From: Pelosinus fermentans
GTDB lineage: Bacteria; Bacillota; Negativicutes; DSM-13327
NCBI GenBank assembly: GCA_002434245.1
Contig: DJJR01000031.1
Coordinates: 34,042 to 98,041 of the forward strand
Reading direction: 5' to 3'
DNA: 64,000 nucleotides
Shown: in pieces, positions 1,705-64,000 of the stretch
How the letters are laid out: each line of letters opens with the position of its first letter
How positions within the stretch are numbered: position 1 is the stretch's first letter
Notes under the pieces: generated by a model
The model's database searches: none
What the model was told of the DNA's origin: nothing
What the model saw: only the letters and a program-made list of their open reading frames with translations
Position numbers and translations under genes: made by a program

Positions 1705-4650
1705 ATGAAACGTCAATTAAAAATTTTAGAAATTTTAGATGAATTATGCACGAAAAAACTAGATAAGAATATGATGCAGCAGCATAAACCATTAGGTTTT
1801 ACAGCAGAAGAAGTGGCAATTTTAGCGGGGTTTTCCCGTAGTAATGTCAGCAGTGATTTAAATACCTTACATCGGGAGAAGTTAGTAATAAAAGTAGTAA
1901 GTCGATCTACCTATTATGTCACAGTGAAATGGATAGAAAGTATTTATCCCGCCTTGAAGGGAAAGGTTCCTGAAGTGGTACGGCACCAGCGGCAAATCGA
2001 AGAGTTGGCTGCAAATGAATTTTCCCAACCAGGAAGGACGGGAGAGGTATCTGATACCATTAGTCTGAAAAATGATAACGCCTTATATGATAATGCTCAA
2101 AATTGGGATTCTTTTGATGGCTTAATTGGTGCCCAAGATAGTTTAAAAGTCGCAGTCGAGCAAGCAAAGGCTTCAGCTCTATATCCCCCCAAAGGTTTAG
2201 ATACGCTATTAGTTGGTTCTACGGGTGTGGGAAAAACCTTATTTGCTGAATATATGTATAGATTTGCTTGCAGCCAGGGAAAAATTGCTTATGGTGGACA
2301 GTTTATTGTATTTAACTGTGCTGATTATGCAAATAATCCTCAGCTTTTGATGTCTCAGCTTTTTGGTCATGTACGAGGCGCTTTTACTGGGGCTGATAAA
2401 GATAAAGCAGGCTTAGTGGAAAAAGCGGATGGGGGCATGTTATTTTTAGATGAGGTACATCGCTTGCCGCCAGAAGGACAGGAAATGTTGTTTTATCTAC
2501 TAGACCGTGGGGATTTTCGCCGTATGGGTGATACTGATAAAATTCGCCATGTTACCATAAGGCTAGTCGCAGCTACTACCGAGAATCCAGATTCTGCATT
2601 ATTAAAAACATTCTTGCGCCGTATACCTGTGGTCATATCGCTGCCTGATTTATTCATGAGACCATTGCATGAGCGATTTGAACTTATTAAATTTTTACTG
2701 GCACGTGAAGCAGTACATATTCAATCGAAGCTGATTGTAAGTCAGGAAGCCTTATGGGCATTGCTGTTATACCGATGCCAGGGAAATATTGGGCAGCTGC
2801 GCAATGACTTACAGCTAATATGTGCAAAAGCTTTCTTGCATCGGGGGGATAAGGCTGCACCTGTTCGTCTGGTTTACGAAGAGCTGCCGCCAAAGATCAA
2901 ACAAGCCATTGTCTATGATCCTCAAGCCCGTCTGGAGACTAGCAAAATTTTATGTACATTAGGCAGTGAGTTGTTCATTCAGCCAAATGGAGCAGCGGCG
3001 GATGAAGAGGCAGATCGGAGCTTGCCAAAGAATTTTTATCAGACCATTAGTGAGCGCATGCAGTTTCTTAAGTCCCAAGGAATTGGACAGGCAGAGATTA
3101 TTCAATGCATTGAGATGGATTTTGAGAACTATTTCCAACGATTAGGTCCCGAGCAACTGGAAATATCCCAGGAATATTTACAAAGTATTTTGCCACAAGA
3201 ATTTCTCAGTGTTTTTGACCTCGCCTGCAGCTTAGCTGAAAAAATGGGAAAAGCACTGAGCCGTAGATTATATTATGCCTTAGCCATTCATATTGCTGCT
3301 ACGGTAGAGCGAATTCGCAGCGGTTTGCCCATTGTAAATCCTAATGTTAGATCTGTGGCTGAGCAGCATCCTAAAGAATATATTGTAGCAGAAAAAATGG
3401 CGCAGTGTATTGGTGAACAGATGAGCATCTTGATCCCGTTGGATGAAATCGGATTTATCGCTTTAATGCTGGCAACCTTTGACGACCGCCAAGGCAAGGA
3501 AGAACGAAAAGTTGGTGTTTTGGTGATTACACATGGTAATTCGACTGCTACCAGTATGGTCGATTTTGCAAATAAGCTGCTAGGAGTTACCCATGCCAAA
3601 GCAATTGATATGCCTCTGGAGGCCAATGTGGATTGGGCAATAGAAAAAGCCGTTCAGGTGGCAAAAGAAATTGACCAAGGGAAAGGCATAATTCTGCTGG
3701 TTGATATGGGATCATTATCAGGTGTAGCGAAAGCTCTTACGAATCGAACGGGTATCATGGTAAAGAGTGTAGAAATGGTAAGTACATTAATGGTACTTCA
3801 TGTATTACATAAAGCCATATTACCGAAAAATGATATTAATATTGTCTATCGGTCTGCTTGGACAGCACGTAGTATGGTTCAAACGGTAGTACAGGCAAAT
3901 AATCCGACTGATTTTATGAATGGTAAAGATAAGGCTATTTTGACTACTTGCCTTACAGGGCAGGGAGCAGCGGCCAAAATTAAGGGCTTATTAGAAAAAC
4001 TGTTAAATCAATGGCAGTTATTTAATATTCGTGTAATTGCTGTAGAAGCTGGCAATCAGGAAATGCTACAAACTCGTTTGATGTCTTTGCAGCATTCCTA
4101 TGATATCGTAGCTAGTGTAGGCAGTATTGATCCTCAAATGGAGGATAGACCTCATATTGCCATCGAAGAGCTTATGCAGGGGGGGACCGGCAGTGAACTG
4201 CGCCGTCTGCTTACGGATGGTTTAAAGGCTTCTGATATTGCAGATCGTTATACAGACAGGGGCATGGATTGGGAAGTGATGCGTGGTATGGTTGCAGGCA
4301 TGTTGGATGAATTTCTGACTTTTGTGAATCCGCGTAAAGTGATGGATACTCTTATGATCTGCATTAGAAAGCTGGAAGATGAATTGCAAGTGGAGTTTTC
4401 TTCTTCTGGACTGGTACGCATGTTAGTACATTCTGCCTGCATGGTGGAACGCTTGCTTACTCATGCAGGAATCAGTTATCCGGAAACGGCTGCATTTATT
4501 GCTGAGCACCCTCTTGAATATTCGGTGTTAAAAAAAGTAAGCAATGCTCTGGAAGAACAATTCACTGTGCATGTAAATGATGAAGAAATTTGTCATCTAA
4601 TTGAAATTATTAAAATGGAGCGGCGAAGGAATACTGTGGAAGAAGGGTAA
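1705..4650 (+). CDS. LevR-type sigma-54-dependent activator with PRD and EIIA/EIIB domains (orphan)
   Basis: This is a 981-residue cytoplasmic activator of sigma-54 promoters controlled by PTS phosphorylation. Visible in order are an N-terminal helix-turn-helix (about 30-60), an AAA+ domain with Walker A GSTGVGKT (about 171-178), the sigma-54 contact loop GAFTGA (225-230) and Walker B MLFLDE (245-250). A PRD follows at about 500-595, then a mannose-type EIIA domain with VITHGN near 608, an EIIB-like segment with TTCLTGQG, and a second C-terminal PRD. The start follows AGGAGAG. No PTS genes follow it; the next gene is another LevR-type regulator behind a sigma-54 promoter. It may therefore act on that promoter, on the one at 18057, or elsewhere. 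It ends in a PRD, where the other two LevR-type proteins here end in an EIIA-like domain. Confidence 0.9.
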   Translation: MKRQLKILEILDELCTKKLDKNMMQQHKPLGFTAEEVAILAGFSRSNVSSDLNTLHREKLVIKVVSRSTYYVTVKWIESIYPALKGKVPEVVRHQRQIEELAANEFSQPGRTGEVSDTISLKNDNALYDNAQNWDSFDGLIGAQDSLKVAVEQAKASALYPPKGLDTLLVGSTGVGKTLFAEYMYRFACSQGKIAYGGQFIVFNCADYANNPQLLMSQLFGHVRGAFTGADKDKAGLVEKADGGMLFLDEVHRLPPEGQEMLFYLLDRGDFRRMGDTDKIRHVTIRLVAATTENPDSALLKTFLRRIPVVISLPDLFMRPLHERFELIKFLLAREAVHIQSKLIVSQEALWALLLYRCQGNIGQLRNDLQLICAKAFLHRGDKAAPVRLVYEELPPKIKQAIVYDPQARLETSKILCTLGSELFIQPNGAAADEEADRSLPKNFYQTISERMQFLKSQGIGQAEIIQCIEMDFENYFQRLGPEQLEISQEYLQSILPQEFLSVFDLACSLAEKMGKALSRRLYYALAIHIAATVERIRSGLPIVNPNVRSVAEQHPKEYIVAEKMAQCIGEQMSILIPLDEIGFIALMLATFDDRQGKEERKVGVLVITHGNSTATSMVDFANKLLGVTHAKAIDMPLEANVDWAIEKAVQVAKEIDQGKGIILLVDMGSLSGVAKALTNRTGIMVKSVEMVSTLMVLHVLHKAILPKNDINIVYRSAWTARSMVQTVVQANNPTDFMNGKDKAILTTCLTGQGAAAKIKGLLEKLLNQWQLFNIRVIAVEAGNQEMLQTRLMSLQHSYDIVASVGSIDPQMEDRPHIAIEELMQGGTGSELRRLLTDGLKASDIADRYTDRGMDWEVMRGMVAGMLDEFLTFVNPRKVMDTLMICIRKLEDELQVEFSSSGLVRMLVHSACMVERLLTHAGISYPETAAFIAEHPLEYSVLKKVSNALEEQFTVHVNDEEICHLIEIIKMERRRNTVEEG

Positions 4651-34082: not shown

Positions 34083-34204
34083 TGCAGGCTAAATGGGATT
34101 TTTTTAACGAACTACTTGATTATATTGCTCATCTGCAAATAGTGGATAGGAGAATGAGATAAACTGTAGTACTATTGTGATAACAAAATAAATTGCCACC
34201 AAAC

Positions 34205-34432
34205 AGGTGCCTCTTTAACTAGAGGAGAATAGGGAAGTTCGGAAGGGAAGTATATTCCTTAAACGACGCGGTCGCGCCACTGTAATCGGGGAGAAAGTCC
34301 TGCAAATGCCACTGGGAAACCAGGAAGGCGCAGGAGTTTTAAAGATCCGTAAGTCAGGAGACCTGCCTGTTATGGCTGTCATCTACCCTCGCGTAAGGGG
34401 TAATGCCAGAAGGATGGGATTTTTATATAAAA
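34205..34432 (+). promoter_or_regulatory. Cobalamin riboswitch upstream of cobT
   Basis: The aptamer shows the expected order: AGGTGCC near 34206, GGGAAG segments, CGCGCCACTGTA, the paired CCACTGGGAAACCAGGAAG, then the B12 box GTCAGGAGACCTGCCTG near 34353. An expression platform rich in CCCTCGCGTAAGGGG leads into a terminator. Binding of adenosylcobalamin is expected to lower cobT expression, by family knowledge. Confidence 0.95.
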
Positions 34433-63517: not shown

Positions 63518-63546
63518 TTGACAGGTTAAGAGCAATCCTATATACT
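63518..63546 (+). promoter_or_regulatory. Sigma-A promoter of the glycine riboswitch transcript
   Basis: TTGACA, 17 bases, TATACT. The -35 is perfect and the -10 matches 5 of 6. The start near 63553 lies about 50 bases before the first riboswitch aptamer, and no gene intervenes. Confidence 0.85.
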
Positions 63547-63604
63547 GAAAATATAACATTGAAAATTCGAATTATTTGCAAATTTATAATATTCCATGTG
63601 AGGG

Positions 63605-63790
63605 ATGCGGGAGAGATCTGGTTTCAGGCGCCGAAGGAGCAAAGGCAATAAACTCTCAGGCAAAAGGACCGTATTCTAATGGAACTCTGGAAAGATCGCT
63701 ATGCGGCACCCAAGGAGTAACCGGGATATTCGGGATTCTCTGGAGGTAAATAAGACAGAGGCCAACTACGTTGGTTTCTGTCTTATTTTG
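63605..63790 (+). promoter_or_regulatory. Tandem glycine riboswitch, first unit, with terminator
   Basis: The first aptamer has GCGGGAGAGATCTGG, GCCGAAGGAGCAAAGGC and AACTCTCAGGCAAAAGGACC (about 63607-63695). A second, shortened and divergent aptamer follows (about 63696-63760): GGCACCCAAGGAGTAACCGGG then TTCTCTGGAGGTAAATAAGACAGAGG. Its 3-prime strand AAGACAGAGGCCAA pairs with TTGGTTTCTGTCTTA, followed by TTTT, giving a terminator at 63751-63790. Confidence 0.88.
63751..63790 (+). terminator. Terminator of the first glycine riboswitch unit
   Basis: AAGACAGAGGCCAAC and GTTGGTTTCTGTCTTA form a strong stem around TAC, followed by TTTTGGG. It shares its left arm with the end of the second aptamer, so glycine binding may compete with terminator formation. 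Confidence 0.82.
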
Positions 63791-63821
63791 GGTCTAAAGA
63801 TTAACTACATACGGAATGATG

Positions 63822-64000
63822 GTTGCGGGAGAGAACGCTTAACTAGCGTCACCGAAGGAGCAAAGCTTTGTTCAAACTCTCAGGTAAAAAAACCGTAACT
63901 GGACCGAACTCTGGAGAGTACACTTCGTAACCGAAAGTGTCGCCGATGGGGAGCCCCGCTGCGGGCGAATCTCTCAGGTAAAAGGACAGAGAACAAGAGT
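63822..64000 (+). promoter_or_regulatory. Second tandem glycine riboswitch (runs to the window edge)
   Basis: The aptamer at about 63822-63917 has GCGGGAGAGAACGC, GTCACCGAAGGAGCAAAGC and AACTCTCAGGTAAAAAAACCG. The next, at about 63918-63993, has GTCGCCGATGGGGAGCCCCG and ATCTCTCAGGTAAAAGGACAGAG. Both carry the conserved GCCGA[AT]GG[AG]G and CTCTCAGGTAAAA core, so this unit is complete. The regulated gene, probably of glycine cleavage or an amino-acid symporter by family knowledge, lies beyond the window. Confidence 0.92.

What the first reader, a model, noticed from the sequence alone, without database searches (positions are those of the whole stretch)
63605..64000. Two complete tandem glycine riboswitches in series, four aptamers with no gene between
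The usual arrangement is one tandem pair before a gene. Here a first pair (with a divergent second aptamer) ends in its own terminator at 63751-63790, and a second complete pair starts 32 bases later. Transcripts from the TTGACA-17-TATACT promoter at 63518 would have to pass both controls. This could give a steeper or two-step response to glycine, or the first unit could be a decaying duplicate.
Basis: partly seen in the sequence, partly recalled or inferred. Interest (0 to 1): 0.75.

Follow-up and report, generated by a model that had tools for sequence, protein, structure and literature searches.

The report
Double glycine riboswitch before gcvT operon
In a Pelosinus bacterium, and in some distant relatives, the mRNA for glycine-breakdown enzymes begins with two complete glycine sensors in a row, each with its own stop signal, so transcription probably has to pass two glycine checkpoints; this layout has been described before, but here the first checkpoint is an old, conserved and different type, not a decaying copy.

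Summary
Confirmed: four RF00504 aptamers at 63598-63991 form two tandem glycine riboswitches in series. The first ends in a strong hairpin (63748-63788); the second's hairpin straddles the window end, with 126 N in its loop. Then gcvT-gcvH-gcvPA-gcvPB.

Unit 1 is not a decaying duplicate. In four Pelosinus genomes its aptamers vary at 4 of 155 columns, against 92 of 367 gcvT third-codon positions. The same order recurs in G020 and G094, two other families. The units are 56-60% identical; unit 1's relatives sit before gcvT alone, glycine reductase operons and a permease. Its second aptamer has core changes shared by 10 of 10 gcvT-linked unit-1 loci while its helices persist: probably a structural partner that no longer binds glycine. 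G133 has a unit 1/unit 2 hybrid.

The architecture is in print (16 quadruplets, PMC9481103). Most likely: two ON-switch terminators in series. A simple model predicts lower leak and larger induction, with modest or no steepening. Nothing was tested at the bench.

The parts
63518..63546 (+). Promoter-like TTGACA-17-TATACT, the only + strand candidate found upstream of gcvT
   Evidence: 86-100% identical in 4 Pelosinus genomes, upstream flank 36-57%
63594..63788 (+). Riboswitch unit 1 (leader, two aptamers, terminator)
   Evidence: RF03166 tandem model 63594-63762, 86.9 bits, below its gathering score of 110; RF00504 matches
63598..63681 (+). Unit 1 aptamer 1, common core motifs (GGAGAG / GCCGAAGGAG / AAACUCUCAGGC)
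   Evidence: RF00504 65.8 bits; core table
63685..63760 (+). Unit 1 aptamer 2, variant core (GGAAAG / ACCCAAGGAG / AUUCUCUGGAGGU)
   Evidence: RF00504 33.5 bits, 43.4; core changes in 10 of 10 gcvT-linked unit-1 loci; helices covary
63748..63788 (+). Terminator-like hairpin of unit 1: 19 bp, 3-nt loop, U-rich end UUAUUUU; its 5' strand holds CAGAG (63756-63760), the 3' strand of aptamer-2 P1
63789..63811 (+). Spacer between the units, poorly conserved, no + strand promoter-like site
   Evidence: 9 of 21 columns vary
63812..64000 (+). Riboswitch unit 2 (tandem pair with common core motifs), cut by the window end in its terminator
   Evidence: RF03166 63812-63993, 97.9 bits, below gathering; RF00504 matches
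63816..63905 (+). Unit 2 aptamer 1
   Evidence: RF00504 68.5 bits; 0 of 92 columns vary in 4 Pelosinus genomes
63909..63991 (+). Unit 2 aptamer 2
   Evidence: RF00504 46.4 bits
63980..64000 (+). 5' arm of the unit 2 terminator (its 3' arm is L007:769-790, after 126 N); holds the 3' strand of aptamer-2 P1
   Evidence: complete hairpin in P. fermentans JBW45 -35.5 kcal/mol, z -10.4

Best explanation
This is the leader of the glycine cleavage operon (gcvT-gcvH-gcvPA-gcvPB) of a Pelosinus species, made of two complete transcription-terminating glycine riboswitches in series. In each unit the 3' strand of aptamer-2 P1 is also part of the 5' arm of a terminator, so glycine binding should hold P1, block the terminator and let RNA polymerase pass (ON switch). 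With one promoter upstream, polymerase must pass both, which multiplies their read-through: low basal expression, large induction, perhaps a somewhat steeper response. Unit 1 is a separate riboswitch lineage, related to those of glycine reductase operons, not a recent copy of unit 2. Its second aptamer probably no longer binds glycine and serves as folding partner and switch helix, while aptamer 1 senses glycine. Shown by sequence: the anatomy, shared P1/terminator strands, conservation, recurrence, downstream genes. Inferred: glycine binding, ON direction, one transcript through both units, loss of binding in unit 1 aptamer 2.
For: Four RF00504 aptamers over cut-off. Terminator-like hairpins: unit 1 in 7 of 7 genomes with a two-unit leader (G007 split over contigs included), regional folds -17.2 to -27.9 kcal/mol; unit 2 folded in 5 of 7, -35.5 to -38.1; G000's is cut by N and G094's was missed by my pattern, though its two arms can be read. 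A CAGAG-type P1 strand lies in the terminator's 5' arm in both units. Downstream GcvT, GcvH, GcvPA, GcvPB. Two-unit leader in one piece in 6 genomes (G000-G003, G020, G094; G000's with the N gap), and in G007 as the two sides of a contig break. Constraint on unit 1 aptamers. Gcv operons carrying unit-1 parts separate from unit-2-only operons at 99.7 SH-aLRT / 99 UFBoot on concatenated GcvT/H/PA/PB of 28 genomes. The B. subtilis gcvT riboswitch is an ON terminator switch with about 17-fold induction, and an aptamer-2 pocket mutation there is tolerated (PMC5666159, section 6 and passages read). Before glycine cleavage genes aptamer 1 is the more conserved, and aptamer 2 can decay to a ghost (PMC6944388, passages read).
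Against: No binding, transcript or reporter data. The terminator scan lists no + strand site at hairpin 1 in this genome nor at either hairpin in G094, while it lists both in G020; the U-tract of hairpin 1 here is broken (UUAUUUU). Hairpin 1 varies more than the aptamers (7 of 43 columns) and is weak in G007 (-17.2 kcal/mol), so unit 1 may be leaky. Relatives manage with one unit: unit 2 type only in G004, G006, Propionispira and Sporomusa, unit 1 type only in G005, G046 and G122, so the double gate is not essential.
Confidence: 0.72

Rival explanations
1. Unit 1 is a decaying duplicate of unit 2 with no function.
For: Its aptamer 2 scores only just above the family cut-off (33.5 against 32); hairpin 1 varies at 7 of 43 columns; several relatives lack unit 1.
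Against: 4 of 155 aptamer columns vary in four species against 92 of 367 third-codon positions; a hairpin is kept in 7 of 7 genomes; core changes the same in 10 of 10 gcvT-linked unit-1 loci; compensatory changes in its helices; only 56-60% identical to unit 2 and grouped with unit-1 types elsewhere.
Confidence: 0.04
2. Unit 1 aptamer 2 is a re-specified aptamer for another ligand, so unit 1 integrates glycine and a second metabolite.
For: Concerted core changes (GGAGAG to GGAAAG, CCG to CCC, AAU/AAA to AUU) with the fold kept; glycine-type variants that reject glycine are reported (PMC9481103, passage citing its reference 69).
Against: Positions near the expected pocket vary inside the set (G002/G003 CCCAAAG, G020 CCCACGG, an inserted base in Pelosinus), as expected of a lost site; type-1 degeneration is common before gcv genes (PMC6944388).
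Confidence: 0.1
3. The two units act on different transcripts: unit 2 has its own promoter, or unit 1 makes a separate short terminated RNA.
For: Unit 1 ends in a terminator-like hairpin; a short terminated RNA would form without glycine in any case.
Against: No + strand promoter-like site between the units in G000, G020 or G094, the three leaders scanned; spacer poorly conserved. The scan covers sigma-70 type sites only.
Confidence: 0.07
4. The double unit is near-neutral redundancy: either unit alone suffices and collapses happen freely.
For: Solo unit 1, solo unit 2 and a hybrid all occur at gcvT.
Against: Both units stay highly constrained together in the four Pelosinus genomes compared, and two-unit leaders persist in three families.
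Confidence: 0.15

Closest known systems
Quadruplet glycine riboswitches (two 2-aptamer riboswitches in tandem; PMC9481103)
   Same: Two tandem glycine riboswitches in series, predicted to combine cooperative and pseudo-cooperative control
   Different: That paper counts 16 examples; the section and passages I read do not name the organisms, so this one may be among them. They do not mention distinct ancestry of the units, a conserved variant aptamer, or hybrid and solo relatives
Tandem glycine riboswitch RF00504 before gcvT (B. subtilis type; PMC5666159)
   Same: Aptamers, P1-terminator overlap, gcv target, expected ON switch
   Different: One unit there, two here
Type-1 singlet glycine riboswitch (aptamer plus 3' ghost; PMC6944388)
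   Same: Aptamer 1 with common core, aptamer 2 degenerate, gcv context
   Different: Unit 1 aptamer 2 keeps P1, P2 and P3 and still scores as RF00504, so it is not reduced to a ghost
Glycine riboswitches before grdX-trxB-grd operons
   Same: Among the nearest relatives of unit 1 outside gcv operons
   Different: Different target genes; aptamer-2 core CCAAAGG or CCGAAGG, J1/2 GGAGAG

Membership tests
Glycine riboswitch (RF00504) | Covariance score over the gathering cut-off | tested here: met
   4 of 4 aptamers: 65.8, 33.5, 68.5, 46.4 against 32
Glycine riboswitch (RF00504) | Usual conserved core | tested here: inconclusive
   3 of 4 aptamers have the motif forms common in the other loci; unit 1 aptamer 2 differs at three motifs
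Glycine riboswitch (RF00504) | Glycine-metabolism gene downstream | tested here: met
   GcvT, GcvH, GcvPA, GcvPB
Glycine riboswitch (RF00504) | Binds glycine | not testable with these tools
   Needs in-line probing or calorimetry
Quadruplet glycine riboswitch | Two 2-aptamer units, each with its own expression platform, before one operon | tested here: met
   the unit 2 hairpin in this genome is inferred from its two arms across an N gap
Quadruplet glycine riboswitch | One transcript through both units | tested here: inconclusive
   Only one promoter-like site found before the units; no transcript data
glycine-GGAnGA (RF03166) | Score over gathering 110 | tested here: not met
   86.9 and 97.9 bits
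Type-1 singlet with ghost aptamer | Second aptamer reduced to a ghost | tested here: not met
   Aptamer 2 retains five helices, 99.0% of cells paired, although its core is altered

The most novel reading that the evidence does not exclude
Unit 1 is a heterotypic switch whose second aptamer was retuned to another ligand, so the gcv leader would be a two-input AND gate (glycine plus a second metabolite) followed by a glycine-only gate, kept across several Negativicutes families.
Probability: 0.08. Interest if true: 0.75.

Novelty: new member of a known kind. Interest (0 to 1): 0.42.

Why it matters
Two-unit glycine leaders were proposed from sequence to combine two ways of sharpening a response. 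Here nature offers the comparison set: the same operon with both units, unit 1 alone, unit 2 alone and a 1/2 hybrid in related bacteria, which makes the question of what a second checkpoint adds directly testable. The variant aptamer also marks a state between a full tandem and a type-1 singlet.

Tried and rejected
Decaying duplicate: rejected on conservation and recurrence. Recent local duplication: rejected, units 56-60% identical. glycine-GGAnGA variant class: under its gathering score. A gene lost from between the units: I only read the spacers; G020's longer spacer was scanned for promoters and not searched further. GcvT alone gave weak support for one origin (split at 46% UFBoot, 31 operons); GcvT+H+PA+PB gave 99.7/99 (28 operons; G078, G134 and Sporomusa left out, GcvPB missing in G126). 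The AU test is uninformative, the constrained and free trees having the same likelihood. Aptamer trees rest on aptamers of about 74-95 nt; 8 unit-2 loci (G307, G308, Sporomusa, G013, G106, G138, G118, G126) were dropped by my pattern, and deep branches are unreliable. The first extraction script had a faulty pattern and was replaced. One of three sequences folded (L083) was placed at wrong coordinates and is not used. A plasmid search found only partial matches in 3 records, the widest covering 30% of the query. The search for glycine riboswitch + Pelosinus gave one paper; its passages concern a purine riboswitch.

Papers: PMC9481103 passages and section 22; PMC12452182, PMC6944388, PMC4521916, PMC3764141 passages; PMC5666159 passages and section 6; PMC12060979 passages and section 17; all others only as search listings. 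The mapping of residue numbers of PMC12060979 onto these aptamers is my own alignment by hand and rests partly on recalled V. cholerae sequence.

Full report
Observation. Rfam finds four glycine aptamers at the end of the window, all over the family cut-off, and the tandem model RF03166 covers each pair whole, though below its own gathering score. The window lies in a 4.55-Mb, 82-contig assembly. Beyond the window come 126 N, the other arm of the second terminator, then gcvT, gcvH, gcvPA, gcvPB, a protein with a sub-threshold Radical_SAM match and a lipoate-ligase-family protein. The two named relatives have 8 nt where the N run stands, so the gap is probably an assembly artefact at a long hairpin.

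Mechanism. In each unit the CAGAG strand that closes P1 of aptamer 2 also lies in the 5' arm of a terminator-like hairpin. Hairpin 1 is -25.1 kcal/mol (z -7.2); hairpin 2 in JBW45 is -35.5 (z -10.4). This is the layout of the B. subtilis gcvT ON switch (PMC5666159). The only + strand promoter-like site found upstream of gcvT is at 63518-63546. The consensus terminator scan is mixed: both hairpins listed in G020, neither on the + strand in G094, hairpin 1 not on the + strand here. A minimal model of two independent gates multiplies read-through; steepening is modest with equal affinities and vanishes or reverses when they differ 10-fold. The 6% leak was chosen to match a 17-fold single unit.

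Conservation. In four Pelosinus genomes (G000-G003; G007 left out because its locus is split over two contigs) variable columns are: unit 1 aptamers 4 of 155, unit 2 aptamers 2 of 170, hairpin 1 7 of 43, hairpin 2 two columns in its 48 nt (most of it unread in G000's gap), spacer 9 of 21, upstream of -35 80 of 99, gcvT third codon positions 92 of 367. Unit 1's aptamers are under strong constraint; hairpin 1 is looser in sequence.

Distribution. In the genus, 8 of 8 genomes have glycine riboswitches. At gcvT: two units in 4 of 8 plus the split G007; unit 2 type alone in G004 and G006; unit 1 type alone in G005. In 300 genomes of the class, 158 have RF00504 matches (strict filters). I re-scanned the 31 genomes outside the genus with at least 4 matches: clusters of three or more aptamers within about 400 nt occur in 2 of 31, G020 and G094, and both prove to be unit 1 + unit 2 + gcvT-gcvH-gcvPA. 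Genomes with fewer matches were not re-scanned. A model of unit 1 aptamer 2 (R1, 8 sequences) run over 380 genomes of the class gives 13 places at 54.6-113.9 bits in 10 genomes and nothing else above 41.0. The five places not used to build it are before gcvT (G122, G046), glycine reductase operons (G046, G094; GrdX and GRDB models) and an amino acid permease (G094). In 398 genomes of the phylum the best three hits outside the class, 54-56 bits, precede grdX-trxB genes (recognised by eye). So unit 1 belongs to a lineage akin to grd riboswitches; the direction of descent is not shown.

Evolution. On concatenated GcvT/H/PA/PB of 28 genomes the 11 operons with unit-1 parts separate from the 17 with unit 2 only at 99.7/99; that they form a clade depends on rooting with G011, G015 and G030. 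Among the 11 are two-unit leaders, unit 1 alone, and G133, whose aptamer 1 is unit-1-like (mean 83% against 62%) and aptamer 2 unit-2-like (76% against 54%), as if the middle had been deleted. One assembly of the quadruplet followed by collapses fits; loss and regain of unit 2 is not excluded. Pelosinus G004, G006 and G005 carry gcv operons from other parts of the tree, so operons with their leaders have probably moved or been sorted.

The odd aptamer. Unit 1 aptamer 2 has GGAAAG for GGAGAG, CCC for CCG and AUU for AAU/AAA in 10 of 10 gcvT-linked unit-1 loci, and CCC in 0 of 19 unit-2-type second aptamers of the same table (sequences, motifs). Part of this is by choice: two of the ten were found with a model of the other eight. 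The permease locus has CCC but GGAGAG; the two grd loci of the class have CCA. Outside the class one riboswitch before a gcvT-like gene (G461, L138, 45.1 bits) also has CCC, so that change is not unique to this lineage. Helices of 11 loci pair in 99.0% of cells, with 4 pairs changed on both sides (0 of 500 shuffles; further pair types 33 of 500; slid versions 34-48% paired); the structure was drawn on the same alignment, which favours it. Yet bases at or beside the expected ligand site vary (G002, G003, G020) and Pelosinus adds a base next to it. Cryo-EM text places glycine near U81, G69 and A68 of V. cholerae aptamer 1 and A175 of aptamer 2 (PMC12060979); by my hand alignment those neighbourhoods changed. 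I read this as loss of glycine binding with the fold kept, in line with the gcv-context trend in PMC6944388.

Known or new. Two tandem glycine riboswitches in series are in print (PMC9481103, section 22). In the listings I saw no other description of quadruplet glycine riboswitches and none from Pelosinus; the library holds only open-licence papers. I file this as a new member of a known kind, with a conserved variant aptamer as its distinctive feature.

Noticed in passing
window 34188-34384 (+): Cobalamin riboswitch, 96.9 bits.
   Followed up: no
L008 (G000:C78), about 3217-3400 on the - strand: Second tandem glycine riboswitch of this genome, before a periplasmic binding protein (Peripla_BP_6).
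   Followed up: partly
L096 (G024:C1) 756-918 and 1196-1366: Two tandem glycine riboswitches about 280 nt apart; by eye the second has its own TTGACT..TATAAT and is followed by short, near-repeated ORFs of about 27 aa.
   Followed up: partly
L094 (G192) 2809-3311 and L095 (G219) 852-1384: Two glycine riboswitches about 315-335 nt apart before an amino acid carrier of the AgcS family.
   Followed up: partly
L068 (G133) 1415-1587: Hybrid leader: unit-1-like aptamer 1 joined to unit-2-like aptamer 2 and terminator before gcvT.
   Followed up: yes
L138 (G461, outside the class), around 1500: Glycine riboswitch before a gcvT-like gene whose second aptamer also has CCC for CCG.
   Followed up: no
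L007:643-768 (just after the window): 126 N inside the unit 2 terminator loop; in MAG G007 the assembly breaks inside the same leader.
   Followed up: partly
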